Below are positions 10,461 through 64,000 of a stretch of DNA of 64,000 bases, piece by piece. Below the pieces are notes generated by a model. The model had not been told where the DNA came from. It ran no database searches and saw nothing but the letters and a program-made list of their open reading frames with translations. The position numbers and the translations under genes are program-made. The stretch is taken from contig NC_073744.1 of NCBI RefSeq assembly GCF_029784135.1, positions 18,757,441 to 18,821,440 of the forward strand. The letters are read 5' to 3'. Within the stretch, counting starts at the first letter, position 1. Each line of letters opens with the position of its first letter. The stretch comes from Toxorhynchites rutilus septentrionalis. Taxonomy: Eukaryota; Arthropoda; Insecta; Diptera; Culicidae.

Positions 10461-10479
10461 AAAAACTTATAATAATAAG

Positions 10480-10545
10480 ACGGGTGGGTAATGTCGGGGA
10501 CATGACCGGAAAGACGTAGGACTACACCAAGGGGTGTCCATTATT
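10480..10545. mobile_element. Solitary GGGTGGGTAAT cassette end
   Basis: CGGGTGGGTAATGTCGGGGAC with AGACGTAGGACTACACC after it is the E1-type hairpin end without its element. It is a truncated remnant between E2-C and E3-A. Confidence 0.5.
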
Positions 10546-10609
10546 CGAATATCATGGAGCACAGATCCCAGAATGACCAACTTTTCATGTGCAAAATTGC
10601 AAAAAAAAA

Positions 10610-11550
10610 TGGGTGGGTTATATCTATGATATAACCGCAAGGTTGACGTGAGACTACCTTAGCGTAGCAATCATTCGTTTGTATTGATTAAATTTTTGAT
10701 AGAATGAAACAATTCCCGAATTCAATTGAATTCAATATATTTGCTTTGTGAGTAAAAATTCCCTATAAGGTCAATTCATGCATTTTGATAGATTATGTTC
10801 TTCGTTACAAGTAAATTTAATGACAGTCTTTTTACGTTTGGTATGATGCCTAGGACAAAATATGTCAACGGAAGGACCATCAAACGATTATTTTATGTTA
10901 CGTTTCCTTCTGAAGTTTGCATCTCTCAAGTGTACGTTTTTCTCGAATCGTGAATTTGCTTGATTTGATGAACTTCAGGCACTTGCACAAAGGCAAGCGA
11001 GTACAAAAGTACTCGCAGTTTGCATTTATTTGCTGAGCCGATTTCTCCAGACATCTTGGTTTTGAAATCTGTGTTAGAGGCAAACACATTTCAGTCGAAA
11101 CAAAAATACCCCCGACTTTCATGTATTTGCAATGCCGATCTCTCCAACGCTGCATGGTTTTGAAGTCTGTGTTAGGGAACACATTTCGGTGAGAACAAAA
11201 GTCCCCATACTTTCATGTATTTACAATGCCGATTTCCCCAAGGCTGCTTGGTTTAGATGGCTGTGTTAGGGAAACTGTAGATCGGGCCAATCAAAATGAG
11301 GCAGTTAGGGCGTTTAGATAACGCTTAACATTTTACAGTTGTTCAATTGTTTATCTAATGAAAAATAACATTTAATTAATTACGATAGAAGCGTAGAAAT
11401 ATTTCCTATCAATTGATGTAAAAATCTTTCCGATCCAGTAAGAAATGTTCGAGTTATAAGCATTCGGAATCTTTCATTTTTTCCTGCATGTTCTGTGTTT
11501 ATGTTTTCATTTTACCCCCCATATACTCCGGTTAGACGTAGTCCCACGTC
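10610..11550 (-). mobile_element. Cassette with tandem ~100-bp units (type E3-A)
   Basis: The hairpin end GGGTGGGTTATATCTATGAT is at 10611 and the palindromic end GACGTAGTCCCACGTC at 11535-11550. It contains three degenerate ~100-bp units (11030-11275). A longer copy in reverse orientation is at 40074-41404. The last ~250 bp resemble the E1 terminus, although the body is different. Confidence 0.6.
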
Positions 11551-13273: not shown

Positions 13274-15192
13274 TTACATTTGATAATCATCATCAAAATC
13301 ATAATCATCCGCTCCAGGATTAGATTTCTTCTTCTTGCCACCAACATTGATCGTACAAGAATCCATATCCTCTGCCACATCGGCGACTTTGCCCTCAACG
13401 CGTGAGGCAGCTTTTTTCTTTGCCTTCAGGATTGCCTTTCGGTTTTTGTTCAACGTTTGGTTCCCTTCCAGCTGGAACATGGGATCCTTCCGGAACTTCT
13501 TTTCCTCCTCCGCGTAATCATTCACCTTACGCTTCTTCCCTTTCGCGCCCTTCATTTCGTCATCCTGTTCGATAATCTTGCCGGATCCTTGCAAAAGATC
13601 GCCCAGAACATTTTTGGCTTGATCATCCTTGGACAGTTGCATGCTGACGGGTCCCTTGGTGTCAATCTCCATCGTCAGAATTTCGTCCTTCGAGATAACC
13701 ATCATTTCCTCTCCATCTTTATCCTTCATCTTGAAACTCTCTTCGTACTCATTTCCCAACGCATCCAAGACCTGATCGAAGCTCTCCAAGTTAAACTCTG
13801 GCGCATCGGAGGACACCAACTGAGCACTAATGTGAATATCATCACCTTCCTCCGGCGGATGAGTGCAGTACTTAATCTTGCCAGCGTTCCAGTCTTCAAT
13901 TAGCGTTCGAGCGGCTTTTTTCACGTCCGGAACGCCTTTCTTAGCAAGGGCCCCCATTTTGATTGCCTTTCTGGCCAAAAACTCGTCCGTCGAGTGAAAT
14001 TCACTGATATCGTACAATTTGCAGAAATAGGTCATCGTTCCACGCTTCAAAATATCTTCGGCCAGTGGAAAGGGATCCTGAATTTCTGTCACCTTTTGAG
14101 CATTCTTGAGCGCAAAGAACCGATTCTGGTCTTCATCCTGCGGCCGTTGGAAGATAATTCCCGGACTGTCCAGAAGCTTCACGTGGGAATCAATTTGTAC
14201 CTCCTGCATCTGCCTTGTGATGCCCGGCTTGGCCCCTACCAGACAGGCTCGTTTACGCTTGAGAGAATTCACCAGCGAAGACTTTCCTACGTTCGGAAGA
14301 CCAACAATTCCAACCCTAATCGATGTGCGAATGTCGTCATTGCGACAATAATTCGCCAAAAGTTCCTTCAACAAATCCGCTCCTATACAAGGTGAGGCTT
14401 CAAGAGTTTTGGCCGTTTTGAATTTACGATTGCCAATCCTGTACTTTTGTGTTTGTGTCGTGGCTTTGAACGGAATAACCGGTCCAGATTTACGGAGATA
14501 CTTCAACCATTTCTCCAAATTTTCCCTGGGCACCAGATCGGCTTTGTTCAGAATCAATACCAAACGTTTCTGGCCTGGCGCTTCGCGGACAATTTGTGCC
14601 ACCTCAGCACATCTAGTTCCCAGAGGATCCCTGGCATCGACCACCTCAAGAATCACATCGGCCGCGTCGATGACTTTCTTGAACTCTTTGAAGTATGCCT
14701 TAAGCGAGCCTTCCTTTCCCCGGCCGAAATTCGTATATTCTTCCTCTTGTTTGGCTGCGGCAGCTTCCACCTTCAAAGGGTCGTATTCTTGACCTCTTTT
14801 GGCTGCATCCGCCGCGATCGACTCGATCGTCTGTCCCTTGGGGGCCTCCTGTCGTTGCTGTTTCATCAATTCCCGCTTTCTTTCCTTCTCCTGCTCGGCG
14901 AATTTCTTGTGTTCAGCTACCTCATCCAAAATTTCCTTCTTGAAGGGACATATATTGGGCACCTGGATCAGTTTCTGCTTTTTCGATTTGAACTTGGGAA
15001 GCTTTTTAGCTTCCTTTTCCTTCTTCCTCTTGCTGGCGGCAATTTTCTTCAGCACTTTGTATCTGAGCCCTGCCTTTTGTCGTTTGGATTGTCGACCTGA
15101 AAAGAGTGTTGATTTTAATTTAGTTTATGATTATTTGATGGAAGGGATTGCCTTCCAGCAGAATACTCACATTTCAGTGCTTTTAGGGCCAT
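13274..15192 (-). CDS. Ns1: Nucleostemin/GNL3-type nucleolar GTPase (Ns1-like), two coding exons
   Basis: Joined exons 15192-15171 and 15096-13274 encode 614 residues. Exon 1 is only 22 coding nt (MALKALK plus one base), ending at a GTGAGT donor; the second exon starts after a TTTTCAG acceptor and continues C-R-Q-S-K-R. Domains: a basic N-terminus with a GNL3-type conserved stretch (KQKLIQVPNICPFKKEIL); a circularly permuted YlqF/YawG GTPase with DARDPLG (161-167), G4 NKAD (191-194), G1 GLPNVGKSS (273-281) and G3 DSPG (317-320); then a Lys/Glu-rich C-terminus ending DDYDFDDDYQM. The family acts in nucleolar ribosome biogenesis and growth. An internal GTG-initiated frame from 15055 omits the conserved start, so the spliced ATG is preferred. 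Length fits the family. Confidence 0.93.
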
Positions 15193-17290: not shown

Positions 17291-18348
17291 GTTAATATTA
17301 AATAATAATAAAATAATCTTAAATAGAAAATAATAAACTTATCTATCGGCCATATTGCGAAATGTTTACTAATGTTTACTTTCGGGCATGAATGCCAGGT
17401 GCACAGATCAATCCGTGTTGCTCAATTTTTTCAACGTGTCTCAGGCCTTAAATCAATTGATTCATTTCGTTGGTGTTGATGAAATAAAAAGAATTACAAA
17501 CTCTGATGAACGATTTAAATAGAAAATAATAATATTACATATTACAAAAAATCACACATATTACACAGATTTTCATTGTTTTGAAAATGAATGAACAAAA
17601 ATTACAATAAAAAAGATCTGGCATCCCTTTTGGCAGTTTTATTTGCCACTTGCCACTTTGTTTGCCACTCTTCAATTATCAGCAGCGGCAAATAATGTCA
17701 AACATCAAAAATACACAAAATTTGACTGAAATATTAAACGTACGTGGTTTGACAAATTGGTCTAAAAAAGTTTAAGCAAACAAGTACTAAATATTTGCTC
17801 GTCGTGTTTTGTGTCGAATACATTTGATCAGTACACGTTGATCAAATTTTATCTGTCCAAAATAGTCAAATATTTGGCTTTGGTCAAACAGTGTATGAGC
17901 ACCCTGAGTGGTGCCTCGGCATGTCGCTTTAAATGTAAATAACTGTATTCAGAAAACACTATTCGCACACTTGTTCCGAATCCCCTCTGCAAAAAAATGT
18001 AAAAATCTCAAAACACCAGAACTGTCAAATATTTTCGCCCGAACTTGCGCCATGTGAGTTGAGTAATCATCGTAATCATCGTCCTTGCCGCGGCTCTCGA
18101 GAAGAAAATCAGTTCCAGCTGTTTATGCTTGTTTGATTTGCAATTATCGAGCTATGATAGTTCCAATTGGACGCCTATTGTTATTACCATAGATCGCGTT
18201 TCAATTACTGTACATAACAAACGAAATGTGGCGAGAGCAGCAGCTGTTTCGATGATGACCCGAGGAAGTAAAACCGCGATTCGCGAATCCTAATGTCAAC
18301 ATCGGAAGACGGGTCCGATATACGAAAACCAAAACGAATTGCAACAAT
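17291..18348. other. Intergenic, with truncated MITE at 17908-17946
   Basis: AT-rich to 17880, then the right TIR of the pseudogene-containing segment, a 40-bp ACAGTAATTTACAT-family remnant, and about 400 bp upstream of COQ2 with no clear TATA box. Confidence 0.45.
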
Positions 18349-19707
18349 ATGTTACGAACACTGGTCGGTTGTTGGAGGTGGCGGCATCGGACAGATGGAA
18401 CGCTGCTGCAAATTTACAGCCGTCATTTCGTTGGCCGAATGGCGATAATTTCCACCGGCGGCGTTTTGCGTGATGAGCTGAGCAATAATTGCGCAACACT
18501 GTCTAACAGTTGTCCGCTGGTGCGGCGGAGTGGTGTTAGTTCGACCCGAGTCCTGGATGAGCGGTGGCCGCGTTCTAGTTTATGTACCTCCAATAGCGTT
18601 AGTAGTTTACTATTAAGAGAATTTAGCAGTCAAGTTAAGAGTAAGGAAAACGAACCAAAGGGCTTACTGCAGAAGCTGGGACAGAATCCATACGCAAGAC
18701 TAATGAGAATTGATCGACCGATTGGATCCTGGCTGTTGTTTTGGCCGTGCGGATGGAGTATAGCTTTATGTGCACCCGCTGGGTGCTGGCCGGATCCGGT
18801 GATGTTGGCTTTGTTTGGTATGGGAGCGTTTATAATGCGGGGTGCCGGTTGCACCATAAACGATATGTGGGATAAGGATATTGACGCCAAAGTTGTCAGA
18901 ACCAAGGGAAGACCTCTGGTGGCCGGTGAGTTGAGTCAGCTGGATGCTTGGGTGTTTCTATCGACGCAGTTGGGAGTTGGTTTGTTGATACTGCTTCAGC
19001 TAAATTGGTACTCGATTGTTCTTGGAGCAAGTTCTCTCGGGCTAGTCATTATTTATCCACTGATGAAGCGCGTAACACATTGGCCACAGTTGGTGCTAGG
19101 TATGACCTTTAATTGGGGCGCTCTGCTGGGTTGCAGTGCTGTTCAGGGTTCAGTGATGTGGTCTGCCTGCTTACCGCTCTATCTGGCAGGAGTCTGCTGG
19201 ACAATAGTGTACGATACCATCTATGCCCACCAGGACAAGGTGGACGACATTCTGCTTGGCATCAAATCAACGGCTATTCGATTCGGTGACAACACGAAGC
19301 TGTGGCTTAGTGGATTTTCAACGGCTATGATTGGAAGTCTAATAACATCGGGAATTGCGTGTGAGCAATCGTGGCCGTATTATGCGGCCTTAACAGTGAT
19401 CTCTTCACATCTGGCGCAACAAGTGGGCTTTTATTGGTTTTCTATTCTAAGGCATATTTATGATTCTCTTCTGTTGCAGATTTATACACTCAACATCAAC
19501 AACCCGACGGATTGTGCCACCAAATTCATCTCCAACCATCAAGTTGGGTTCATCCTATTTCTGGGCATTATAGCAGGAACATTGTACAAAGGATTCAGCA
19601 AGAGTAGTGCCACCGCTAGTTCCACACCTTCATCTGCCATTCTAGTGGCTACGGCAAATCAGGCCGTACCGAGTAAAACCGCAGCCGGACGGAATGCGAT
19701 CGTTTAA
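18349..19707 (+). CDS. Coq2: 4-hydroxybenzoate polyprenyltransferase, mitochondrial (COQ2)
   Basis: UbiA-superfamily membrane enzyme that attaches the polyprenyl chain to 4-hydroxybenzoate in ubiquinone biosynthesis at the inner mitochondrial membrane. The first ~95 residues are Arg/Ser-rich and lack acids at the start, like a transit peptide. [20 protein letters not shown] opens the core. The first Asp-rich motif NDMWDKDID is at 171-179 and the second, [13 protein letters not shown], at 288-300, with several hydrophobic helices around them. The continuous frame gives 452 residues. A 57-nt segment at 19423-19479 has a GT start and CTGTTGCAG end; removing it joins SHLAQQ to [12 protein letters not shown], as in other COQ2 proteins, giving 433 residues. 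The ATG at 18349 is followed by a typical presequence. Confidence 0.92.
19423..19479 (+). other. Probable in-frame 57-nt intron of COQ2
   Basis: Begins GTGGGC and ends TTCTGTTGCAG after a pyrimidine-rich stretch. It is a multiple of three without stops, so it hides as 19 extra codons ([19 protein letters not shown]). Known COQ2 proteins run AHL..QIYTLDI without this insert. Confidence 0.75.
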
Positions 19708-37123: not shown

Positions 37124-37489
37124 GACGTAGGACTACGTCTAACCGGAAGATATAGGGGGTGAAATGGAAATCTAGGCACTGAACAAGTAGGAAAAAATGC
37201 AAGATTTGGAACGCTTATAACTCGAGCATTTCTCAATAGATCGCGAAGGTTTTGGCATCAATTGATAGAAAATATATCTACGCATCTATCATAACGAATA
37301 ACATTTCATTTTTCTTGAGATAAATAATTGAATAATTGTGAAATATCAAGCATTGTCAAAATGCACTATGTGCCCATTTTTGATTGGTCCATTTTGTGCT
37401 CCTCAAATCGTACCGACTAAAACGGGCAACCAGCGGCAGCAACGAAATAGAATGAAGCACGCTTGGAAAGGAAAAAGAAAAAAATGAAC

Positions 37490-37642
37490 GAAACATTGGT
37501 CGCAGTCTCACACATGCGTAATTCTCGAGCCAGCCAGTCAGCTTAAAAATCCCCGCTCCGCTACCGTAACGATCATTCTCATTCAAACCGTACACCACAT
37601 CGGTTCGCATCACAACACATCAACAAACCAACCCAAGCAGCC
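37490..37642 (+). promoter_or_regulatory. H2A-cassette promoter a
   Basis: CACACATGCGTAATTCTCGA, AGCTTAAAAATCCCCGCTCC and ATTCTCATTCAAACCG precede the H2A-like ATG. Conserved at 60545-60708 and, inverted, at 50544-50640 and 60031-60194. Inferred from position; activity is unknown. Confidence 0.45.
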
Positions 37643-38101
37643 ATGTCTGGACATGGTAAAGGAGGAAAAGTGAAGGGACAGACAAAATCCCGCTCGAACC
37701 GTGTTGATCTGGAGTTCCCCGCAAGGGTAGCTAGGCCGAGCGCGTTAGTACCAGTGCACCAGTCCACCTAGTCGGCGTTATATAGTTTCGGCCGCCGAAG
37801 TGATCGAGTTGGCTGGTAAAGCTGCTCGCGACGATAAGAAAAACCGCATTCAGAACAGAACACATTCGGTTCGGTGGACATCAAGACAACAGGCAGTTGC
37901 AGCGAGTGGCGAGTGGCAAACGCAATCGCAAAACGGAATCAGGTAGCAGAAGAAAAAAGTTTGTTCTTTATACAATCTGCTTTGGTGGCAAATCCAGAAC
38001 AAGGCGGCATCGAGGGCGTTCGAAATGGTTTTTTTCAAAACCACGAGTACTAAGTTTTCTAAATTGGAATCATTCCATAAAACAAGGCGCTTTTCAGGGC
38101 C
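37643..38101 (+). pseudogene. Histone H2A pseudogene (copy 1a)
   Basis: Opens MSGHGKGGKVKGQTKSRSNR, nearly the canonical H2A N-terminus. It then loses the VGRIHRLL segment, continues RKGS-stop-AERV, and after a frameshift reads SAAEVIELAGKAARDDKKNR. The C-terminal part is badly diverged (SGVTIAQGG still traceable near 37910-37935). A histone 3' stem-loop closes it at 38086-38101. At least one stop and two frameshifts make it non-functional as H2A. Confidence 0.85.
38086..38101 (+). promoter_or_regulatory. Histone-type 3' stem-loop
   Basis: GGCGCTTTTCAGGGCC fits the animal histone mRNA 3' hairpin (CTTTTCAG core, SLBP site) with one stem mismatch. Equivalent elements: plus 39395, 42065, 49608, 59056, 61057, 62092, 62893; minus 38676, 40002, 48886, 50173, 57831, 58632, 59667, 61668. 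Confidence 0.75.
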
Positions 38102-38290
38102 ATTAAACCTCCCAAAAAAGAGCTTAGGAAATACAGTTCAATGCTTTCTAAAACAATATCCAAAATAATAATAAAACACAAAATGATTTTTTCATAATTT
38201 GTTTGCCAGGATATGATGAGTATGTGAATTTGGCAGTTGTTCTGAGCTTATTGATTTTCACCAATTCTTAAATTGCTTCCAGATTGAAAG

Positions 38291-38521
38291 TACATTAATT
38301 TACACTTATCTCGACATTTAGCTAATTGGACGGACCTGTAATGCGACATATTTAGTTGGACATTTTTGTAAACATAGAGTTCGGGGTCCAAATTATGACC
38401 CCACATTGAAAGTCGACACTGTACCACTGTCATCGCAAATGTTCAATTACAGGTTAAAATTACCTCCAATCCGATACTGAGTGGTGGTAATGCGACGTGC
38501 CATTGAATGTAATTTACTGTA
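38291..38521. mobile_element. MITE (ACAGTAATTTACAT family) inside H2A cassette
   Basis: ACATTAATTTACACTT at the left, ATGTAATTTACTGTA at the right, same core as 7168-7403. Because it recurs at the same place in every H2A cassette, it entered before the cassettes multiplied. It splits the second H2A unit: a C-terminal scrap (CAATCGCTAAACAG, GGTTTAGCCGAACA) follows at 38575-38620. Confidence 0.7.
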
Positions 38522-38675
38522 AAATATGTCACAAGCTGGATGGGAAGAAATTTTCCAACTGTGAAAGCTGTGGCGAGTGGCAAATGCAATCGCTAAACAG
38601 AAAGGTTTAGCCGAACAAGATGGGGATATGAGTGATAACAAAACAATAAACTCTTTAGATTGAAGATAATTTTGT

Positions 38676-38691
38676 GATCCTGAAAAGGACC
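38676..38691 (-). promoter_or_regulatory. Histone-type 3' stem-loop, minus strand
   Basis: GATCCTGAAAAGGACC is the reverse of GGTCCTTTTCAGGATC. It points away from promoter b (38750-38880), suggesting that a divergently transcribed histone gene, for instance H2B, once lay between them. Only ~180 bp remain and no coding match was found. Confidence 0.6.
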
Positions 38692-38739
38692 CTTTTTAGC
38701 CTGCATGTGAATCCAACGAGCGAACAAATCGTAATGAAT

Positions 38740-38925
38740 GTATTTTTTTGCCATCGCTCCCTTTTAACGCTCATTCGTTCGTCTCGTTGGACTTGCCCCT
38801 CTGGCTGAGTCTGCCGTTTTGGTTCTATCCTGTGAGTGTGTACCGCTAGAGTATAAAACACGCGGACCCCAAAAAAATATCTTATTTTCTTTCAAACCGT
38901 AAACCCGTGTGGTTGTACGGCATCA
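38740..38925 (+). promoter_or_regulatory. H2A-cassette promoter b with TATA box
   Basis: GAGTATAAAACACGCGGACC at 38850-38869 is a strong TATA match, followed by TATTTTCTTTCAAACCG and the H2A-like start. The same block occurs at 41410-41590 and 61730-61876, and inverted at 49376-49555 and 58863-59010. Confidence 0.6.
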
Positions 38926-39410
38926 GCATCGTGGACGTAACAAAGGAGGATAAGTTAAGGGAAAGGCAAAGTCCCACTCGAATCGTGCAGGTGTGCAGTT
39001 CCCCGTAGGTGTATCCGCCAATTGCTCAGCAAGGGTAGCTAGGCCGAGCGCGTTAGTACCAGTGCACCAGTCCACCTAGTCGGCGTTATATACTTTCGGC
39101 CGCCGAAGTGATCGAGTTAGCTGGCGAAGCTGCTCGCGACGATAAGAAAACCCGCATTCGGAACAGAACACATTCGGTTCGGTGGACATCAAGACAACAG
39201 GCAGTTGCAGCGAGTGGCGAGTGGCAAACGCAATCGCAAAACGGCAGCAGGTAGCAGAAGAAAAAAAGTTTGTTCTTTATACAAACTGCTTTGGTGGCAA
39301 ATCCAGAACAAGGCGGCATCGAGGGCGTTCGAAATGGTTTTTTTCAAAACCACGAGTACTAAGTTTTCTAAATTGGAACCATTCCATAAAACAAGGCGCT
39401 TTTCAGGGCC
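38926..39410 (+). pseudogene. Histone H2A pseudogene (copy 1b, b/a hybrid)
   Basis: The N-terminus lost its ATG but reads [26 protein letters not shown], then after a 1-nt shift RIRQLLSKGS, the shared stop, AERV, and SAAEVIELAG in another frame. The 5' half belongs to the b type and the 3' half to the a type, with stem-loop at 39395-39410. Confidence 0.8.
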
Positions 39411-40073
39411 ATTAAACCTTCCAAAAAAGAGTTTAGGAAATACAGTTCAATGCTTTCTAAAACATTATCCAAAATAATAATAAAACACAAATTGTTTTTT
39501 CATCATTTGTTTGCCAGGATCTGATGAGTATGTGAATTTGGCAGTTGTTCTGAGCTTATTGATAGTTGGGGACTTTCCTGATTATTCAATTTTCACCAAT
39601 TCTTAAATTGTTTCCAGATTGAAAGTACAGTAATTTACAATTAGTTCGACATTTAGCTAATTGGACGGACATGTAATGCGACTTATTTAGTTGGCATTTT
39701 GTAAACATAGAGATCCAAATTATGGCCCCACATTGAAAGTCGACACTGTACCACTGTCATCGCAAATGTTCAATTACAGGTTAAAATCGCCTCCAATGCG
39801 ACACTGAGTGGCGCTTCGGCACGTCGCATTGAATGTAATTTACTGTACAACATGTGACAAAGCTGGATGGGAAGAAATTTTCCAACTGTGAAAGCTGTGG
39901 CGAGTGGCAACAAATCGCTAAACAGGAAGCTTTAGCCGAACAAGATGGGAATATCGAGTGATAACAAAACAATAAACTCTTTAGATTGAAGATAATTTTG
40001 TGATCCTGAAAAGGACCCGTTTTAGCCTGCATGTGAATCCAACGAGCGAACAAATCGTAATGAATGTATTTTT

Positions 40074-41404
40074 GACGTGGGACTACGTCTAACCGGAATA
40101 TATGGAGGGTAAAATGAAAACCTAAACACAGAACATGCAGGAAAAAATGAAAGATTTCGAATGCTTATAGCTCGAACATTTCGTACTGGATAGGAGAGAT
40201 GTTTGCATCACTTGATAGGGAATATTTCTACGCATCTATCGCAACTAACAAAATGTTGTTTTTCATTAGATAAACAATTGAATAACTGTAAAATATTAGG
40301 CGTTATCTAAACGCCCTAACTGCATCGTTTTGATTGGCCCGATTTACGGTTTCCCTAACACAGCCATCAAAACCAAGCAGCCTTGGGGAAATCGGCATTG
40401 CAAATACTTGAAAGTAGGGGGACTTTTGTTCTCATCGAAAAATGTTCCCTAACACAGACTTTAAAACCAAGCAGTGAAATCGGCATTGCAAACACACGAA
40501 AGAGCCTAGAGGCGAATGAACTGAAAAGTTTAAACCCTCTTGAAGCCAAAAAGAAGAAAAAGAACACACGAAAGTAGGGGGAGCTTTTGTTCCTACCGAA
40601 ATGTGTTCCCTAATAGAGATTTCTAAACCAAGGTGCCTGGAGAAATCGGTATTTCAAATTCATGCAAGTCGGGGGTATTTTTGTTCCGACTGGAATGTGT
40701 TTCCCTAACACAGACTTCAAATCCATGAAGCGTGGGGAAATCGGCATTGCGAATTCATACAAATCGGGGGTATTTTTGTTCCGATTGAAATGTGTTTCCC
40801 TAACACAGACTTCAAAACCGAGGTTTCTGGGGAAATCGGCTCTGCAAATAAATGCAAACTGCGAGTACTTTTGTCCTCGCTTGCCTTTGTGCAGAGTGGA
40901 ATATGTCTGTCCTAACATGATCTTCTAAACTTAGGAACCTGGGAAAATCGTGCAGCCACTAGAAGCGAATGAACTTCCCAGTTTCAAGCAAATTCGAGAT
41001 TCGAGAAGTATGTACACTTTTGGGATGTAAACTTCAGAGGGAAATGTAAAATAAAATAATCGTTTGATAATTTTTTTTGTCTTTATTGGAAAGATTTTCA
41101 GCCTTAGGCTGGTTCATCAAACGTTTGATAATTCTTCCGTACATATATTTTGTTCTAGTCATCATACCGAACGTAAAAGGTCCGTCATTAAATTTACTTG
41201 TAACGAAGAACAATCAATCACAATAAATGAATTGACTTTACACGGCATTTGTTAATTTTTTTCACTCACAGAGCAAATATATTGAACTCAATTGAATTTG
41301 GAAACTGTTTCATTCAATCAAGAATTTAATCAATACAAACGAATGATTGCTAAGCTAAGGTAGTTCCACGTGAACTTTGCGGTTATATCATAGATATAAC
41401 CCAC
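40074..41404 (+). mobile_element. E3 cassette nested in the H2A cassette (E3-N)
   Basis: GACGTGGGACTACGTC at 40074 and GGTTATATCATAGATATAACC just before CAC at 41404. It splits AATGAATGTATTTTTTTGCC, which is continuous at 38743-38762, so its limits are clear. It holds five to six ~100-bp tandem units (40360-40950) and a ~55-bp scrap of another repeat at 40500-40560. Longer than E3-A (three units). Confidence 0.75.
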
Positions 41405-41591
41405 TCATTTTTTTTGCCATCGTTCCCTTTTAACGCTCATTCGTTCGTCTCGTTGGACTCGCCCCTCTGGCTGAGTCTGCCGATTTGTCTCTATCCTGTG
41501 AGTGTGTACCGCTAGAGTATAAAACACGCGGACCACAAAAAAATATCTTATTTTCTTTCAAACCGTAAACCCGTGTGGTTGTACGGCATCG

Positions 41592-42080
41592 GCATCGTGG
41601 ACGTAACAAAGGAGGACAAGTTAAGGGAAAGGCAAAGTTCCACTCGAAACGTGTAGGTGTGCAGTTCCCTGTTGGTCGCATTCACTGATTGCTCCGCAAG
41701 GGTAACTAGACCGAACGGATTGGTGCCGGAGCACCAGTATACCTAACAGCGATCATAGAGTTTCGGCCGTCGGAGTGCTCGAGTTGACTTGCAAAGCTGC
41801 TCACGACAATCAGAAAACCCGCATCAAGAACAGAGCAGCTTCGGTTCGGCGCTCATCAAGGCAACAATTTGTTTCAGTGAGTGGCAAAGTGTTTCTCCGG
41901 CACGTCGCATTAAATGTAATTTACTGAACAACATGTCACTAACTGGATGGGAAGAAATTTTCCAACTGTGAAAGCTGTGGCGAGTGGCAAACGCAATAGC
42001 TAAACAGGAAGGTTTAACCGAACAAGATGGGAATATCGAGAGATAACAAAAACACAACACCAAAGGTTCTTTTCAGAACC
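41592..42080 (+). pseudogene. Histone H2A pseudogene (copy 1c)
   Basis: Reads [39 protein letters not shown], then VLELTCKAAHD. The two stops occupy the H2A Arg and Tyr codons and recur at 49080-49375. A MITE remnant (41885-41930) interrupts the C-terminus. A perfect histone stem-loop GGTTCTTTTCAGAACC closes it at 42065-42080. Confidence 0.85.
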
Positions 42081-42259
42081 ATCAACATATTCATAAAGAG
42101 TAAACAGTAAACTAATCCATTTTTCAGGTAGATAGGTGATAGGATTCACGCAGGAGAAGAAAATAAAACAATATATTTAAAATATATATTTAACAAAAGC
42201 TGTCCCCTTTGTATAGTCCTACGTCACTCCGGTTATGTCCCCGACATTACCCACCCGTC

Positions 42260-48711: not shown

Positions 48712-48885
48712 TATGCAGAAAAAAAGATGGGTGGGTAATGTCGGGGACATAACCGGAGTGACGTAGGACTATACAAAGGGGACAGCTTTTGTTAAATATA
48801 TATTTTAAATATATTGTTTTATTTTCTATCCTATCTGCCTGAAAAATGGATTAGTTTACTGTTTACTCTTTATGAACATGTTGGT

Positions 48886-49375
48886 GGTTCTGAAAAGAAC
48901 CTTTGGTGTTGTGTTTTTGTTATCACTCGATATTCCCATCTTGTTCGGTTAAACCTTCCTGTTTAGCTATTGCGTTTGCCACTCGCCACAGCTTTCACAG
49001 TTGGAAAATTTCTTCCCATCCAGCTTGAACATGTTGTTCAGTAAATTACATTTAATGCGACGTGCCGGAGAAACACTTTGCCACTCACTGAAACTAATTG
49101 TTGCCTTGATGAGCGCCGAACCGAAGCTGCTCTGTTCTTGATGCGGGTTTTCTGATTGTCGTGAGCAGCTTTGCATGCCAACTCGAGCACTCCGACGGCC
49201 GAAACTCTATAATCGCTGTTAGGTATATTGGTGCTCCGGCACCAATCCGTTCGGCCTAGTTACCCTTGCGGAGCAATCAGTGAATGCGACCAACAGGGAA
49301 TTGGAGACCTGCACGGCTCGAGTGAGACTTTGCCTTTCCCTTAACTTGTCCTCCTTTGTTACGTCCACGATGCCG
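48886..49375 (-). pseudogene. Histone H2A pseudogene (copy 2b)
   Basis: The minus strand reads [18 protein letters not shown], then GRIH-stop-LLRKGN-stop-AERIGAGAPIYLTAIIE. Both stops match copy 1c. The stem-loop GGTTCTGAAAAGAACC (48886-48901) lies 3' of it. Confidence 0.85.
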
Positions 49376-50172
49376 ATGCCGTACAACCACACGGGTTTAC
49401 GGTTTGAAAGAAAATAAGATATTTTTTTGGGGTCCGCGTGTTTTATACTCTAGCGGTACACACTCACAGGATAGAGACAAATCGGCAGACTCAGCCAGAG
49501 GGGCGAGTCCAACGAGACGAACGAATGAGCGTTAAATGGGAGCGATGGCAAAAAATTACATTCATTACGATTTGTTCGCTCGTTGGATTCACATGCAGGA
49601 TAAAAAGTGTCCTTTTCAGGATCACAAAATTATCTTCAATCTAAAGAGTTTATTGTTTTGTTATCACTCGATATCCCCATCTTGTTCGGCTAAACCTTTC
49701 TGTTTAGCGATTGCGTTTGCCACTCGCCACAGCTTTCAGATGGAAAATTTCATCCCATCCAGCTTTGTGACATATTGTACAGTAAATTACATTCAATGCG
49801 ATGTGTCGAAGCGCCACTCAGTGTCGGATTGGAGGCGATATAAGGCTGTAATTGAACATTTGCGATGACAGTGGTACAGTGTCGACTTTCAATGTGGGGT
49901 CATAATTTGGATCTCTATGTTTACAAAAATATCCAACTAAATAAGTCGCATTACATGTCCGTCCAATTAGCTAAATGTCGAACTAATTGTAAATTACTGT
50001 ACTTCCAATCTGGAAACAATTTAAGAATTGGTGAAAATTGAATAATCCCCCAAAAAAAAAAGTCCCCAACTATCAATAAGCTCAGAACAACTGCCTGTTT
50101 TATTATTATTTTGGATAATGTTTTAGAAAGCATTGAACTGTATTTCGTAAACTCTTTTTTGGAAGGTGTAAT

Positions 50173-50290
50173 GGCCCTGAAAAGCGCCTTGTTTTATGGA
50201 ATAGTTCCAATTTAGAAAACTTAGTACTCGTGGTTTTGAAAAAAACCATTTCGAATGCCCTCGATGCCGCCTTGTTCTGGATTTGCCACC
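50173..50290 (-). pseudogene. Histone H2A cassette scrap (copy 2a)
   Basis: Only the 3' flank remains: stem-loop GGCCCTGAAAAGCGCC (50173-50188) plus the ~100 bp before it. The coding part is deleted and replaced by promoter a sequence. Confidence 0.6.
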
Positions 50291-50981
50291 AAACCGATGT
50301 GGTGTACGGTTTGAATGAGAATGATCGTTACGGAAGGAAGGAAGGAAGGTATTGTATTATAGAGACTTTAAGCTTTTGCAGTTCATTCGTCACTAGCCTT
50401 GAGAAAGGCCCTTTGAAAACTCTACTCTACTCTACTCCAGCGCTTCCACCTCCGCCCTCTTGCCTTGAGAAAGGCACTCGATCCCTCGCCGTCCAGCCCG
50501 TCCAGCAACGATGTTGTCCAGTCGGTGTCCACACAAAGAATGATCGTTACGGCAGCGGAGCGGGGATTTTTAAGCTGACTGGCTTGCTCGAGAATTACGC
50601 ATGTGTGAGACTGCGACCAATGTTTCGTTCATTTTTTTCTTTTTCTTTTCCAATCGTGCTTCATTCTATTTCGCTGCTGCTCTGGTTGCCCGTTTTGGTC
50701 GGTACGATTTGAGGAGCACAAAATGGACCAATCGAAAATGGACACATAGTGCATTTTGATATTTCACAATTATTCAATTATTTATCTCAAGAAAAATGAA
50801 ATGTTATTCGTTATGATAGATGCGTAGATATATTTCCTATCAATTGATGCAAAAACCTTTGCGATCTATTGAGAAATGCTCGAGTTATAAGCGTTCCAAA
50901 TCTTGCATTTTTTCCTACTTGTTCAGTGCCTAGATTTCCATTTCACCCCCTATATCTTCCGGTTAGACGTAGTCCTACGTC

Positions 50982-57311: not shown

Positions 57312-57869
57312 GACGTAGGACTACGTCTAACCGGAAGATATAGGGGGTGAAATGGAAATCTAGGCACTGAACAAGTAGGAAAAAATGCAAGATTTGGAAC
57401 GCTTATAACTCGAGCATTTCTCAATAGATCGCAAAGGTTTTTGCATCAATTGATAGGAAATATATCTACGCATCTATCATAACGAATAACATTTCATTTT
57501 TCTTGAGATAAATAATTGAATAATTGTGAAATATCAAAATGCACTATGTGCCCATTTTTGATTGGTCCATTTTGTGCTCCTCAAATCGTACCGACCAAAA
57601 CGGGCAACCAGAGCAGCAGCGAAATAGAATGAAGCACGATTGGGAAGGAAAAAGACGGGTGGGTAATGTCGGTGACATAACCGGAGTGACGTAGGACTAT
57701 ACAAAGGGGACAGCTTTCGCTAAATATATATTTTAAATATATTGTTTTATTTTCTTCTCCTACGTGAATACCTACCTATCTACCTGAAAAATGGATTAGT
57801 TTACTGTTTACTCTTTATGAACATGTTGGGGGTTCTGAAAAGAACCTTTAGTGTTGTGTTTTTGCGTTT

Positions 57870-58615
57870 TTTTTTTACAAACTTGATTCTTGATTTTTTT
57901 CTGAAGGCTTTGTACTTATTAAATGTTCAACGTCGGGCATCTTTCGGCGTATACACATATCGTACAATCAAAATGATGGCTGTGATAGGGAATGCATAGG
58001 TGGTCATCAGCTCGTTCACTATCATATATTTCACTATTGAGCACATTATCGTACCTTAAGCTATGGTTTCGGAGACGAATGAATTGTAAGATTTGTAGTC
58101 TCCGCAAACAAATTAAATAAAAATGAAAAAGAACTGAGGTTTTGGAGACGAACTCTACGATCTGTCGAGAAATAAACGAGCTATAAGCGTCCTGAAAAAC
58201 CAACAGTAAATGCAGGGACGGATGACCTTCGGATTAAAGTCCTTTAAAATAAGAACAGAGCAGCAGGAAATACATAGCTCATCGTGTTGCTCTTTAGTTA
58301 TTTCTGTATACAATGCAGATGTAACGTCAGTCAATTTTAAACATCAGTTATCAACCAAAGAAAGCGGTTCTTGCTACCAAGAAAATTCGTTAATGCCATC
58401 CTGCATACAATGTGTTGTAATTTGAAGCCACTTTTAATTCGGAAACCATACATGGGTTTGTGAAAACTGAATGATTAATTTAAAAGACCCCAACCACCAA
58501 TAAAAACAAAATATAAACAAAGAACAAGCATAAACAAAAAAATCAGTTTATATTATATGTCATATTATGTCACTTTAGAATGCATTGGTATTGTGAAAAA
58601 CTTTTAATAACTCTT
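57870..58615. other. Cassette-specific segment of Q (mirrored at 62124-62869 in P)
   Basis: About 740 bp absent from E1-1 and E1-2, between stem-loops. AT-rich with short frames only, no domain. CTTCGGATTAAAGTCCTTTA resembles a word at 42338. It is probably an older insertion carried along with the cassette. Confidence 0.4.
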
Positions 58616-58631
58616 CTTTGAAAGGTTTAAT

Positions 58632-58862
58632 AGCCCTGAAAAGCGCCGTGTTTTACGGTGGCTGGTTTTGCCACCAAAGCAGTCTGTATAAACAAACTTT
58701 TTCTTTCTTCTACCTGCTGCCGTTTTGCGATTGCGTTTGCCACTCGCTGAAACTAGTTGTTGCCTTGATGAGCGCCGAACCGAAGCTGCTCTGTTCTCGA
58801 TGCGTGTTTTCTGATTGTCGTGAGCAGCTTTGCAAGCCAACTCGAGCACTCCGATGGCGAAA
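58632..58862 (-). pseudogene. Histone H2A pseudogene, short (Q, b type)
   Basis: The minus strand starts directly after promoter b at GVLELACKAAHDNQKTRI, so the N-terminal half is deleted. The C-terminus is a-type and ends with stem-loop 58632-58647. Mirrored at 61877-62107. Confidence 0.75.
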
Positions 58863-59666
58863 TGAGATATTTTTTTGAGGTCCGCGCGTTCTGTACTCTA
58901 GCGGTACACACTCACAGGATAGAGACAAATCGGCAGACTCAGCCAAAGAGGCGAGTCCAACGAGACAAACGAATGAGCGTTAAAAGGCAGCGATGGCAAA
59001 AAAATACATTTATTACGATTTGTTCGCTCGTTGGATTCCCATGCAGGCTAAAAAGGGTCCTTTTCAGGATCACAAAATTATCTTCAATCTAAAGAGTTTA
59101 TTGTTTTGTTATCACTCGATATCCCCATTTTGTTCGGCTAAACCTTTCTGTTTAGCGATTTGTTGCCACTCGCCACAGCTTTCACAGCTGGGAAATTTCT
59201 TCCTATCCAGCTTTGTGACATGTTGTACAGTAAATTACATTCAATGCGACGTGCCGAAGCACCACTCAGTATCGCATTGGAGGCGATTTTAACCTGTAAT
59301 TGAACATTTGCGATGACAGTGGTACAGTGTCGACTTTCAATGTGGGGTCATAATTTGGATCTCTATGTTTACAAAAATGTCCAACTAAATATGTCGCATT
59401 AAATGTCCGTCCAATTAGCTAAATGTCGAACTAATTGTAAATTACTGTACTTTCAATCTGGAAACAATTTAAGAATTGGTGAAAATTGAATAATCAGGAA
59501 AGTCCCCAACTATCAATAAGCTCAGAACAACTGCAAAATTCACATACTCATCAGATCCTGGCAAACAAATTATGAAAAAATCAATTTGTGTTTTATTATT
59601 ATTTTGGATATTATTTTAAGAAAGCATTGAACTGTATTTCGTTAATTTTTTTTTGAAAGGTTTAAT

Positions 59667-60030
59667 GGCCCTGATAAGCGCCGTGTTTTATGGAATGGTT
59701 CCAATTTAGAAAACTTAGTACTCGTGGTTTTGAAAAAAACCATTTAGAACGCCCTCGATGCCGCCTTGTTCTGGATTTGCCACCAAAGCAAATTGTAAAA
59801 AAAAACAAACTTTTTTCTTCTGCAACCTGCTGCCGTTTTGCGATTAAGTTTGCCACTCGCCACTCGCTGCAACTGCCTGTTGTTGTCTTGATGTCCACCG
59901 AACCGAATGTGTCCTGTTCCTAATGCGGGTTTTCTTATCGTCGCGAGCAGCTTTGCCAGCTGACTCGATCACTTCGGCGGCCGAAACTAGCCTTTCCCTT
60001 CACTTTTCCTCCTTTGTCATGTTCAGACAT
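59667..60030 (-). pseudogene. Histone H2A pseudogene (Q, a type)
   Basis: Starts MSEHDKGGKVKGKA, then an internal deletion jumps to the VSAAEVIE-like segment (frameshifted) and AGKAARDDKKTRI. Stem-loop (one changed loop base, CTTATCAG) at 59667-59682. Mirrored at 60709-61072. Confidence 0.8.
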
Positions 60031-60708
60031 GGCTGCTTGGGTTGGTTTGTTGATGTGTTGTGATGCGAACTGATGTGGTGTACGGTTTGAATGAGAATGA
60101 TCGTTACGGCAGCGGAGCGGGGATTTTTAAGCTGACTGGCTGGCTCGAGAGTTACGCATGTGTGAGACTGCGACCAATGTTTCGTTCATTTTTTTCTTTT
60201 TCCTTCCCAATCGTGCTTCATTCTATTTCGCTGCTGCTCTGGTTGCCCGTTTTGGTCGGTACGATTTGAGGAGCACAAAATGGACCAATCAAAAATGGGC
60301 ACATAGTGCATTTTGATATTTCACAATTATTCAATTATTTATCTCAAGAAAAATGAAATGTTATTCGTTATGATAGATGCGTAGATATATTTCCTATCAA
60401 TTGATGCAAAAACCTTTGCGATCTATTGAGAAATGCTCGAGTTATAAGCGTTCCAAATCTTGCATTTTTTCCTACTTGTTCAGTGCCTAGATTTCCATTT
60501 CACCCCCTATATCTTCCGGTTAGACGTAGTCCTACGTCAAAAGAAAAAAATGAACGAAACATTGGTCGCAGTCTCACACATGCGTAACTCTCGAGCCAGC
60601 CAGTCAGCTTAAAAATCCCCGCTCCGCTGCCGTAACGATCATTCTCATTCAAACCGTACACCACATCAGTTCGCATCACAACACATCAACAAACCAACCC
60701 AAGCAGCC

Positions 60709-61072
60709 ATGTCTGAACATGACAAAGGAGGAAAAGTGAAGGGAAAGGCTAGTTTCGGCCGCCGAAGTGATCGAGTCAGCTGGCAAAGCTGCTCGCGACG
60801 ATAAGAAAACCCGCATTAGGAACAGGACACATTCGGTTCGGTGGACATCAAGACAACAACAGGCAGTTGCAGCGAGTGGCGAGTGGCAAACTTAATCGCA
60901 AAACGGCAGCAGGTTGCAGAAGAAAAAAGTTTGTTTTTTTTTACAATTTGCTTTGGTGGCAAATCCAGAACAAGGCGGCATCGAGGGCGTTCTAAATGGT
61001 TTTTTTCAAAACCACGAGTACTAAGTTTTCTAAATTGGAACCATTCCATAAAACACGGCGCTTATCAGGGCC
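60709..61072 (+). pseudogene. Histone H2A pseudogene (P, a type)
   Basis: Mirror of 59667-60030: MSEHDKGGKVKGKA, the same internal deletion, AAEVIESAGKAARDDKKTRI and the same altered stem-loop at 61057-61072. Confidence 0.8.
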
Positions 61073-61876
61073 ATTAAACCTTTCAAAAAAAAATTAACGA
61101 AATACAGTTCAATGCTTTCTTAAAATAATATCCAAAATAATAATAAAACACAAATTGATTTTTTCATAATTTGTTTGCCAGGATCTGATGAGTATGTGAA
61201 TTTTGCAGTTGTTCTGAGCTTATTGATAGTTGGGGACTTTCCTGATTATTCAATTTTCACCAATTCTTAAATTGTTTCCAGATTGAAAGTACAGTAATTT
61301 ACAATTAGTTCGACATTTAGCTAATTGGACGGACATTTAATGCGACATATTTAGTTGGACATTTTTGTAAACATAGAGATCCAAATTATGACCCCACATT
61401 GAAAGTCGACACTGTACCACTGTCATCGCAAATGTTCAATTACAGGTTAAAATCGCCTCCAATGCGATACTGAGTGGTGCTTCGGCACGTCGCATTGAAT
61501 GTAATTTACTGTACAACATGTCACAAAGCTGGATAGGAAGAAATTTCCCAGCTGTGAAAGCTGTGGCGAGTGGCAACAAATCGCTAAACAGAAAGGTTTA
61601 GCCGAACAAAATGGGGATATCGAGTGATAACAAAACAATAAACTCTTTAGATTGAAGATAATTTTGTGATCCTGAAAAGGACCCTTTTTAGCCTGCATGG
61701 GAATCCAACGAGCGAACAAATCGTAATAAATGTATTTTTTTGCCATCGCTGCCTTTTAACGCTCATTCGTTTGTCTCGTTGGACTCGCCTCTTTGGCTGA
61801 GTCTGCCGATTTGTCTCTATCCTGTGAGTGTGTACCGCTAGAGTACAGAACGCGCGGACCTCAAAAAAATATCTCA

Positions 61877-62107
61877 TTTCGCCATCGGAGTGCTCGAGTT
61901 GGCTTGCAAAGCTGCTCACGACAATCAGAAAACACGCATCGAGAACAGAGCAGCTTCGGTTCGGCGCTCATCAAGGCAACAACTAGTTTCAGCGAGTGGC
62001 AAACGCAATCGCAAAACGGCAGCAGGTAGAAGAAAGAAAAAGTTTGTTTATACAGACTGCTTTGGTGGCAAAACCAGCCACCGTAAAACACGGCGCTTTT
62101 CAGGGCT
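61877..62107 (+). pseudogene. Histone H2A pseudogene, short (P, b type)
   Basis: Mirror of 58632-58862; VLELACKAAHDNQKTRIE follows promoter b directly. Stem-loop at 62092-62107; a perfect second stem-loop GGTTCTTTTCAGAACC lies further down at 62893-62908. Confidence 0.75.
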
Positions 62108-63084
62108 ATTAAACCTTTCAAAGAAGAGTTATTAAAAGTTTTTCACAATACCAATGCATTCTAAAGTGACATAATATGACATATAATATAAACTGATTTT
62201 TTTGTTTATGCTTGTTCTTTGTTTATATTTTGTTTTTATTGGTGGTTGGGGTCTTTTAAATTAATCATTCAGTTTTCACAAACCCATGTATGGTTTCCGA
62301 ATTAAAAGTGGCTTCAAATTACAACACATTGTATGCAGGATGGCATTAACGAATTTTCTTGGTAGCAAGAACCGCTTTCTTTGGTTGATAACTGATGTTT
62401 AAAATTGACTGACGTTACATCTGCATTGTATACAGAAATAACTAAAGAGCAACACGATGAGCTATGTATTTCCTGCTGCTCTGTTCTTATTTTAAAGGAC
62501 TTTAATCCGAAGGTCATCCGTCCCTGCATTTACTGTTGGTTTTTCAGGACGCTTATAGCTCGTTTATTTCTCGACAGATCGTAGAGTTCGTCTCCAAAAC
62601 CTCAGTTCTTTTTCATTTTTATTTAATTTGTTTGCGGAGACTACAAATCTTACAATTCATTCGTCTCCGAAACCATAGCTTAAGGTACGATAATGTGCTC
62701 AATAGTGAAATATATGATAGTGAACGAGCTGATGACCACCTATGCATTCCCTATCACAGCCATCATTTTGATTGTACGATATGTGTATACGCCGAAAGAT
62801 GCCCGACGTTGAACATTTAATAAGTACAAAGCCTTCAGAAAAAAATCAAGAATCAAGTTTGTAAAAAAAAAACGCAAAAACACAACACTAAAGGTTCTTT
62901 TCAGAACCCCCAACATGTTCATAAAGAGTAAACAGTAAACTAATCCATTTTTCAGGTAGATAGGTAGGTATTCACGTAGGAGAAGAAAATAAAACAATAT
63001 ATTTAAAATATATATTTAGCGAAAGCTGTCCCCTTTGTATAGTCCTACGTCACTCCGGTTATGTCACCGACATTACCCACCCGT

Positions 63085-64000
63085 CTTTTTTTTTCAGAAG
63101 AATAATCCTTTTATGGATTCATCGTGTCGAATTCAATAATTGCAGTAATTTAAAATTTTATTATTGTTTCAAACCACGGTTACTTGGAAGATTCGTTTTG
63201 TTTGGTTTCTGTCGTTGTCACTTGTAACTCGCACCAGCAGGGTTGCCAACTATAATTTTCAAAAATCAGGAAAAATGGAAATAAAAATCAGGATAGCTCA
63301 TATTGAGTTATCTGGAAAGTTCGTGCTTTTTTGGGAAAATAAAAGCATCATTTTTATAGGCAGACATACGTTTATTCAATTTTATAGGCACAGTTTTGTT
63401 TCATAATCTTTCCCCTTAAAAATTCAAACCTCTCAGAATATGTTTGCATTCTCGTCGAAAACAGTTCAAGGTGTTTTCTATGCTTTCCGTAGAGCCAAAG
63501 TTCTTGTCCTTGAGTGAATTTCGCAGGAACCTAAACCTGTGACAATTTGTAGGTGCAATATTCGGTTAGTTTAGCTGATTGGATTGCGACTCCTATCCAC
63601 ACTCCAGAAATTTTCGTAGCGTTTATGAAGTGAGTTGTTTCATAAACGCAGTGTAGATGCAATCCATTTAAGGTTTTACGGTCAAATTGTGTGACACTGC
63701 CACAATCACTGATGCCTGCCGCTTCACTTCTTCATCAGAATCAACTGTTCCTCTGTGAAGCGAATGGCTTGGATGATTTTCTGTGATTCGAGAATAATTA
63801 ATAGATTTCGCTCCGAGATCAATTGCGAAAGATTTTGCAGGGACACCAGCTTTTTTTTCCAAATGCCGGTACTTCAAATTTTGAACCGCATACGAATTCA
63901 TTATACATATAAAACTGCCAAATATAATCTTTCATCTTTGAATTAAGATTCTGGAGAAAAAATAGCAGCATTATCCTCATTGTTCATTTGTGCAGTTCGC
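63085..64000. other. No recognisable gene
   Basis: AT-rich to the window edge. A 77-codon minus-strand frame at 63668-63901 (contains KKAGVPAKSFAIDLGAKS) has no domain I recognise and could be part of a transposon-related gene; I do not call it. Confidence 0.4.

What the first reader, a model, noticed from the sequence alone, without database searches (positions are those of the whole stretch)
37124..42259. Mobile cassettes that carry core-histone H2A genes with promoters and histone 3' ends
At least three cassettes with the same termini contain H2A coding sequence (MSGHGKGGKVKG.. start, AGAPVYL and AAEVIELAG motifs), TATA promoters and histone-type stem-loops. Capture of a complete replication-dependent histone unit by a non-autonomous element, followed by amplification, is not something I know to be described. 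Known: histone stem-loop and H2A motifs. Inferred: that the cassettes are transposons.
Basis: partly seen in the sequence, partly recalled or inferred. Interest (0 to 1): 0.88.

Follow-up and report, generated by a model that had tools for sequence, protein, structure and literature searches.

The report
Mobile DNA spreading broken histone genes
In the mosquito Toxorhynchites rutilus a family of jumping DNA elements has picked up a piece of the histone gene array (the H2A promoter, the front of a broken H2A gene and histone-type 3' ends) and spread it to thousands of places, which extends a kind of gene capture known from a few broken histone fragments in another mosquito.

Summary
Three H2A fragments lie inside it, plus a nested relative without histone sequence; two more H2A elements lie in the window, one carrying a fourth inverted inside it. 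The ends fit a non-autonomous Helentron (HINE/Helitron2): palindromic 5' tip, its inverted copy just upstream of a 3' hairpin, T-rich flanks, no target duplication beyond Ts. The genome is Toxorhynchites rutilus septentrionalis. Whole-genome pattern counts: 5' end 8,339, 3' end 8,673, H2A start 5,882, H2A promoter 5,211 (controls 0). Cargo: the H2B 3' end, the H2B-H2A divergent promoter, H2A codons 1-78 and further histone stem-loops. H2A was dead before it spread: 3,207 exact copies of a word with two stop codons, 0 with both codons intact. A second repeat carries broken H3, 2,998 matches. Helentrons with broken H4/H1 fragments are published for Culex, and transposon-amplified H3 for fungi, so this is a new variant of a known kind. 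New: H2A and H3, captured promoter and 3' ends, scale. Any use of the promoter is untested; my within-family comparison gave no support.

The parts
37124..42259 (+). Copy A: complete 5,136-bp H2A-carrying HINE
   Evidence: Precise ends; twin at C3:66.73 Mb, 5132 of 5136 identical
37124..37139 (+). 5' palindromic tip GACGTAGGACTACGTC (subTIR/ATIR), preceded by a T run
   Evidence: Sequence; 8,339 genomic copies of the first 62 bp; weak predicted DNA hairpin
37124..37463 (+). Conserved 5' region (the 340-bp terminal region)
   Evidence: 1,365 candidates, the 40 scored all 98-100% identical
37572..37642 (+). P1: part of the H2A promoter and 5' UTR
   Evidence: 73% to donor-type L042:3456-3753 together with H2A-1; alignment
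37643..37850 (+). H2A-1: broken H2A, parts of codons 1-78
   Evidence: tblastn
38027..38101 (+). Two histone-type stem-loops (SL0 38027, SL1 38086)
   Evidence: Pattern scan; not above the Rfam threshold
38596..38696 (-). H2B 3' UTR with stem-loop and AAAGAG element, on the minus strand
   Evidence: 87% to L048:7969-8070, downstream of the H2B stop codon
38701..38931 (+). P2: H2B-H2A divergent promoter with TATA box
   Evidence: With H2A, 77% over 488 bp to L042:3267-3753; 5,211 genomic copies of its core
38932..39158 (+). H2A-2: broken H2A ending at codon 78
40074..41407 (+). Nested related HINE without histone sequence, with ~95-bp tandem repeats
   Evidence: Unoccupied counterparts at 38730 and 61722; 93.6% relative inside the host histone array; repeats
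41408..41598 (+). P2, second copy in this element
41599..41825 (+). H2A-2, second copy, with stops at codons 32 and 39
42060..42104 (+). SL3: histone 3' stem-loop with downstream AAAGAG element
   Evidence: Rfam RF00032, 41 bits; in the element of 12 of 15 genome loci given to Rfam
42214..42225 (+). 3' subterminal inverted copy of the 5' tip (TAGTCCTACGTC)
   Evidence: Sequence
42231..42259 (+). 3' hairpin GGTTATGTC-CCC-GACATTACC and terminus CACCCGTC, followed by a T run
   Evidence: Sequence; 8,673 genomic copies of the 48-bp 3' end; weak predicted DNA hairpin
48726..50981 (-). Copy B: complete 2,256-bp H2A-carrying HINE, stem-loop at 48862-48906
57312..63085 (+). Copy C: H2A-carrying HINE interrupted by copy D
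57654..60538 (-). Copy D: full copy inserted in inverse orientation into copy C
   Evidence: Unoccupied counterpart in copy A at 37465
10479..11550 (-). Copy E: related HINE without histone sequence, same type of ends (only two T after its 3' end)

Best explanation
The cassettes are a family of non-autonomous Helentrons (HINEs, Helitron2 type) of Toxorhynchites rutilus that captured a stretch of the host histone array long ago: the H2B 3' end, then (H2B coding part lost) the H2B-H2A divergent promoter and H2A codons 1-78. The captured unit was duplicated inside the element and the H2A frame decayed. Rep/helicase made by autonomous Helentrons elsewhere then copied the element, passenger included, to thousands of sites by rolling-circle transposition. 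SHOWN: ends, dispersal, cargo identity, shared lesions, insertion without target duplication other than possible Ts, nested mobility, near-identical copies at different sites. INFERRED: the rolling-circle mechanism, the order of capture steps, the autonomous source, and that the histone cargo is a passenger.
For: Of 20 genomic loci fetched (the top-ranked half of the 40 scored hits, so biased to intact copies), 20 hold H2A and 19 run to a 3' end at the same place. Whole-genome counts: 5' end 8,339, 3' end 8,673, H2A start 5,882, promoter 5,211, controls 0; on C1 0-31.3 Mb, 37 of 100 exact 5' ends have an exact H2A start or promoter at the expected place and strand, 0 with strands flipped. T runs of 4 or more at 29 of 29 5' ends and 23 of 23 3' ends of the window and the 20 loci (exceptions outside that set are given under evidence against). 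Cargo matches array DNA of L042/L048. Stops shared: 13 of 23 elements carry both H2A-2 stops; genome-wide 3,207 exact copies of the broken word, 0 with both codons intact. Recent spread: 0 and 1 differences over 2,983 bases and 4 over 5,136 between copies at different places. Composite units L036 and L037 run from an outer 5' end through an inner copy to the inner 3' end; no outer 3' end follows within 4.7 kb and the outer flanks differ, as expected if copying stops at the first terminator.
Against: No autonomous Helentron with these ends was shown. Rep-domain genes with long open frames exist, but the two 2.9-kb 5' stretches I could fetch (L051, L052) lack this tip at up to 4 mismatches in 16; the tip could lie outside them. 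T runs are not universal: the outer 5' end of the L037 composite has only two T before it, and the 3' end of copy E only two after it. The composite units could in principle also come from aberrant cut-and-paste. The predicted DNA hairpins of the two ends are weak (z -1.5 and -0.9). The source of the sequence between H2A codon 78 and SL1/SL3 was not settled.
Confidence: 0.88

Rival explanations
1. Regulatory hitchhiker: the captured divergent histone promoter and stem-loop 3' ends are kept because they drive S-phase, non-polyadenylated transcription of the element and tie its mobilisation to DNA replication; the H2A frame is irrelevant.
For: The majority base of 18 distinct promoter units differs from the donor type at only 3 of 62 proximal sites, against 24 of 93 distal (p 0.0005) and 12 of 52 in the 5' UTR (p 0.005). 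TATA box and a stem-loop with downstream AAAGAG element persist; Rfam scores SL3 above threshold in 12 of 15 loci.
Against: The donor promoter may itself be conserved, so the fairer comparison is with codon positions 1+2: 3/62 vs 18/154, p 0.20; the short TATA stretch differs at 3 of 21. Among 9 copies the proximal promoter is as diverse as broken H2A-2 (pi 0.027 vs 0.024). No transcript data.
Confidence: 0.15
2. Ordinary cut-and-paste MITE/foldback element that captured histone DNA.
For: Inverted nested pairs make foldback-like palindromes (57312-63085).
Against: Inverted repeats are asymmetric (5' terminal, 3' subterminal), a hairpin lies 8 bp from the 3' end, there is no target duplication beyond Ts, and insertion is T-rich. 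The palindrome is one copy inserted into another.
Confidence: 0.05
3. Remnants of a degenerate histone gene cluster or segmental duplications, not a transposon.
For: Tandem internal units exist (e.g. promoter words 1,318-1,321 bp apart at C1:51.70 Mb).
Against: Thousands of copies of the same two ends on three large contigs, different flanks in the fetched loci, and clean unoccupied sites.
Confidence: 0.01

Closest known systems
Helentron-Cq-32A / HINE-Cq-32A of Culex quinquefasciatus (Thomas et al. 2014, PMC4067079; passages read)
   Same: Mosquito Helentron with palindromic subTIRs, 3' stem-loop and T-rich insertion sites, carrying broken histone fragments; some HINE copies contain tandem repeats.
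   Different: There H4 and H1 fragments in a Helentron, eight copies, no promoter mentioned in the passages I read. Here H2A with the divergent promoter and H2B 3' end, and separately H3, in thousands of copies, in Toxorhynchites. Its end sequences are in a supplement I could not read, so I did not compare them.
Histone H3 amplified by a hAT transposon in Pseudocercospora fijiensis and relatives (Dhillon et al. 2019, PMC6710886; passages read)
   Same: Core histone captured by a DNA transposon and amplified (784 H3-like copies), one or two fragments per element, copies inactivated.
   Different: Fungus, hAT with 8-bp target duplications, captured from a spliced transcript; its discussion says transduplications lack promoter sequences. 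Here genomic DNA with promoter and 3' ends, Helentron-type ends.
DINE-1 of Drosophila and HINEs of the mite (same 2014 paper); Helitron2 group (Bao and Jurka 2013, PMC3627910; passages read; author names recalled)
   Same: Terminal architecture: 5' hairpin in the ATIR, 3' ATIR upstream of the 3' hairpin, insertion in T runs.
   Different: No histone cargo in the passages I read.

Membership tests
Helentron-associated interspersed element (HINE) / non-autonomous Helitron2 | Palindromic subTIR of 12-15 bp within a few bp of the 5' end | tested here: met
   GACGTAGGACTACGTC directly after the T run; its hairpin is weak by energy
Helentron-associated interspersed element (HINE) / non-autonomous Helitron2 | Inverted copy of the 5' repeat at the 3' side, subterminal, upstream of a hairpin | tested here: met
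   TAGTCCTACGTC 34-46 bp from the 3' end; hairpin stem ends 8 bp from it. PMC4067079 gives 38-60 bp and 8-35 bp; PMC3627910 gives about 20-30 bp
Helentron-associated interspersed element (HINE) / non-autonomous Helitron2 | Insertion into T-rich sites, variable T number, no target duplication | tested here: met
   29 of 29 5' and 23 of 23 3' ends in the window and 20 loci have 4 or more T; outer 5' end of L037 and 3' end of E have two. Two sites with both junctions and an unoccupied counterpart differ from it in T number plus scattered single bases of copy divergence. A duplication made of Ts alone cannot be excluded
Helentron-associated interspersed element (HINE) / non-autonomous Helitron2 | No coding capacity of its own | tested here: met
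   In copy A no ATG/GTG/TTG frame above 102 aa; the two stop-to-stop frames of 120 aa or more in copies A and B match no Pfam family. Genome copies: only tblastn with H2A
Helentron-associated interspersed element (HINE) / non-autonomous Helitron2 | Autonomous Rep/helicase/endonuclease partner sharing the ends | tested here: inconclusive
Canonical Helitron (Helitron1) | 5' TC and 3' CTRR ends, insertion between A and T | tested here: not met
   Ends are GACG... and ...CCCGTC in T runs
Functional replication-dependent histone gene | Intact open reading frame | tested here: not met
   H2A limited to codons 1-78, stops and deletions; 3,207 exact broken words vs 0 with both codons intact; words with one codon intact were not counted, and one such copy was seen (nested in L033)
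Functional replication-dependent histone gene | Histone promoter, 3' stem-loop and downstream AAAGAG element | tested here: met
   By sequence only; activity not tested. That AAAGAG is the U7-binding element is recalled

The most novel reading that the evidence does not exclude
Mosquito Helentrons repeatedly acquire pieces of replication-dependent histone genes (H4 and H1 in Culex; H2A/H2B and H3 here) because histone regulatory DNA helps the transposon: S-phase promoters and U7/SLBP-type 3' ends give replication-coupled, non-polyadenylated transcription or recruit the element to the histone locus body. Thousands of dispersed histone promoters and stem-loops may also act as decoys for host histone factors.
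Probability: 0.13. Interest if true: 0.9.

Novelty: new variant of a known kind. Interest (0 to 1): 0.62.

Why it matters
It shows that a Helentron-type element can carry a core-histone promoter and histone 3' ends through a genome on a very large scale (about nine 5' ends per Mb), and it suggests that histone capture by Helentrons recurs in mosquitoes rather than being a Culex oddity. It makes a question testable: is recurrent histone capture a by-product of arrays being large multi-copy targets, or does S-phase regulation help the element? It also warns that histone genes, histone stem-loops and histone-derived small RNAs in such genomes may be miscounted, because real histone genes can be outnumbered by transposon copies (inference; I did not count the real genes).

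Tried and rejected
Rejected: three separate cassettes in the interval (one element with internal duplication and a nested relative). Rejected: degenerate histone cluster (thousands of dispersed copies). Rejected: functional H2A-2 copies of the sampled type (0 exact words with both codons intact; that word demands the element's own neighbouring bases, so it tests element copies, not host genes). Less fitting as donor: the L039-type array, which matches the H2A coding part and only short scattered stretches besides; the L042/L048 type matches the promoter as well. H2A genes of other arrays were not fetched. Not supported: purifying selection on the promoter within the family (the high values there for P1 and H2A-1 probably reflect misaligned deletion variants). 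Not settled: L050, next to another histone array, holds P2-SL1-SL3 pieces 91-93% identical to copy C but without either element end; truncated copy or source, I cannot tell. Autonomous partner not found. The HINE inside the histone array (L048) lies in the opposite orientation to the captured block, so it shows that HINEs insert there, not that this one did the capture. Copy C and L033 have the same kind of nested inverted insertion but are only 89% identical over aligned bases, so I do not call them twins. Literature: the tip sequence gave no paper; histone + Helitron + gene capture + mosquito gave none; other searches gave the two main precedents; PMC7754599 read in passages and not relevant. 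Never answered and so missing: the whole-genome H2A protein search and a count of SL3. In one search my first of two regular expressions had a wrong spacing and found nothing; the second is the one used.


Full report
THE OBSERVATION. The interval 37124-42259 is one mobile element with exactly those boundaries. Inside are three partial H2A sequences, a duplicated unit (37648-38747 repeated at 38932-40073, 89% identical), a nested relative without histone sequence (40074-41407), and a histone 3' stem-loop at 42060-42104 recognised by Rfam. Two further H2A elements lie in the window: B at 48726-50981 (-) and C at 57312-63085 (+); C is interrupted by a full inverted copy, D (57654-60538, -). E (10479-11550, -) has the same type of ends without H2A.

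THE GENOME. The assembly is 902.6 Mb in 514 contigs. The COQ2 gene of the window is 96% identical to that of Toxorhynchites rutilus septentrionalis, whose contig length, 206,424,179, equals our C1.

DISPERSAL AND COPY NUMBER. A search with the 344-bp 5' end gave 1,365 candidates; the 40 scored were 98-100% identical and lay on all three large contigs. I fetched 20 of the 40 (the top-ranked half; biased to intact copies): 20 of 20 contain H2A and 19 of 20 run to a 3' end at the same place, in L025 with its last base changed. Pattern counts at up to 3 mismatches: 5' end 8,339, 3' end 8,673, H2A start 5,882, promoter 5,211; reversed-pattern controls 0. On C1 up to 31.3 Mb, 37 of the 100 listed exact 5' ends have an exact H2A start or promoter downstream on the same strand at the expected distance; with strands flipped none. 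The other 63 were not examined; they may have diverged or deleted cargo.

ENDS AND INSERTION. In the window and the 20 loci, 29 of 29 5' ends and 23 of 23 3' ends (nested relatives included) are bordered by at least four T; the outer 5' end of the L037 composite and the 3' end of copy E have only two. The 5' tip GACGTAGGACTACGTC is palindromic; its inverted copy TAGTCCTACGTC lies 34-46 bp from the 3' end, just upstream of a hairpin ending 8 bp from the terminus. Two insertions have both junctions and an unoccupied counterpart in the window: D into C (unoccupied at 37465) and the nested element into A (unoccupied at 38730 and 61722). Occupied and unoccupied sites differ in the number of T and in scattered single bases of copy divergence; a duplication made of Ts alone cannot be excluded. 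This matches Helentron/HINE (PMC4067079, passages) and Helitron2 (PMC3627910, passages). Predicted single-strand hairpins of the ends are weak (z -1.5 and -0.9). No own protein was found: no start-to-stop frame above 102 aa in copy A, no Pfam match for the two longer stop-to-stop frames in A and B.

RECENT ACTIVITY AND A TRACE OF MECHANISM. Copy A has a twin at C3:66.73 Mb with 5132 of 5136 bases identical; two pairs of copies at different places differ at 0 and 1 of 2,983 compared bases. L036 and L037 are composite: outer 5' end, 2.7 kb of element, inner 5' end, inner 3' end, no outer 3' end within the 4.7 kb fetched downstream, with different outer flanks. That is what copying from a 5' end to the first 3' terminator would give. 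By my own reading the composite of L036 sits inside a mariner-like transposase sequence; this was not tested with a domain search.

THE CARGO. Host H2A (124 aa) and its neighbours were read in two array types. The element matches the L042/L048 type: 77% over 488 bp across the whole H2B-H2A divergent promoter and H2A codons 1-78, preceded by the H2B 3' UTR with its stem-loop (88% over 102 bp); the H2B coding part is missing. Both H2A parts stop at codon 78 and share the stop at codon 39, so one capture and a later internal duplication is the simplest reading (inference). Further stem-loops, SL0, SL1 and SL3, the last with a downstream AAAGAG element, are present; Rfam scores SL3 above threshold in 12 of the 15 loci given to it, out of 20 (misses L022, L030, L038).

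H2A IS DEAD. H2A-1 lacks about codons 27-34 and has a stop at codon 39. H2A-2 has stops at codons 32 and 39 in 13 of 23 elements, copies A and B among them; the other ten carry other breaks: a frameshifted version (seven-odd type-2 copies), a large deletion (C and D), or one stop (nested in L033). Genome-wide an exact 35-base word with both stops occurs 3,207 times and the same word with both codons intact 0 times; words with one codon intact were not counted. The frame was broken before the amplification.

IS THE PROMOTER USED? The majority base of 18 distinct promoter units (24 found, identical ones dropped) differs from the donor type at 3 of 62 proximal sites, 3 of 21 in the TATA stretch, 24 of 93 distal sites, 12 of 52 5' UTR sites, 18 of 154 sites at codon positions 1+2 and 19 of 78 at position 3; columns with a majority gap were set aside. 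Proximal against codon positions 1+2 is not significant (p 0.20), and within 9 type-1 copies the proximal promoter is as diverse as dead H2A-2 (0.027 and 0.024). So there is no firm evidence that the element benefits from its histone parts.

A SECOND HISTONE. The Pfam histone search (150 of 7,890 candidates scored) listed dispersed partial hits. I fetched five of them (L043-L047); all five hold broken H3 with the same one-base deletion near codon 119, the stop codon, and a stem-loop-like sequence after it, judged by eye. A 53-base word with that lesion occurs 2,998 times at up to 3 mismatches, control 0. One of the five (L043) shows a related 5' tip and a hairpin 3' end around H3; L044 shows the 3' end only; for the others the ends were not established. 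Calling this family a HINE rests on one locus.

WHERE CAPTURE COULD HAPPEN. A HINE 93.6% identical (over 1,405 bp) to the nested element of copy A lies inside the host histone array between H1 and H2B (L048). So these elements do insert into histone arrays; this insertion is in the opposite orientation and is not itself the capturing one.

NOVELTY. Published: Culex Helentron-Cq-32A with broken H4 and H1 fragments in eight copies, with the remark that histone capture by a Helentron was not documented in other organisms; fungal hAT with H3. Not seen in my searches (open-licence library only): a histone promoter with 3' ends carried by an animal transposon, or this copy number. I file it as a new variant of a known kind.

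Noticed in passing
L043-L047 (C3:267.43, C3:26.24, C2:237.59, C3:259.73, C1:73.02 Mb): A second dispersed family of broken histone H3 copies with one shared one-base deletion and a stem-loop-like 3' end; 2,998 genome-wide matches to a word with the lesion, several of the listed ones in inverted pairs about 880 or 2,330 bp apart.
   Followed up: partly
L048:5856-7260: A HINE relative of the nested element of copy A sits inside the host histone gene array between H1 and H2B.
   Followed up: partly
L050:684-1811: Beside another histone array: promoter, SL1 and SL3 pieces 91-93% identical to copy C, without either element end.
   Followed up: partly
window 67-235 (+) and 6885-7075 (-): Other repeats start with the same tip GACGTAGGACTACGTC and then diverge (about 61% identity over some 170 bp), so several related families use the tip.
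   Followed up: no
window 9466-9536 (-): Rfam U4 snRNA match just above threshold (48.1 bits, gathering 46) but only 71 nt for a 138-position model, adjoining a repeat related to the nested element; probably a remnant or chance.
   Followed up: no
C1:51704123-51708145: Four exact promoter words in tandem 1,318-1,321 bp apart: the internal unit of the element may amplify like a satellite.
   Followed up: no
window 13274-15124 (-) and 18259-19707 (+): Host genes: a GTPase that looks like nucleostemin/GNL3 (my recognition) and COQ2.
   Followed up: partly
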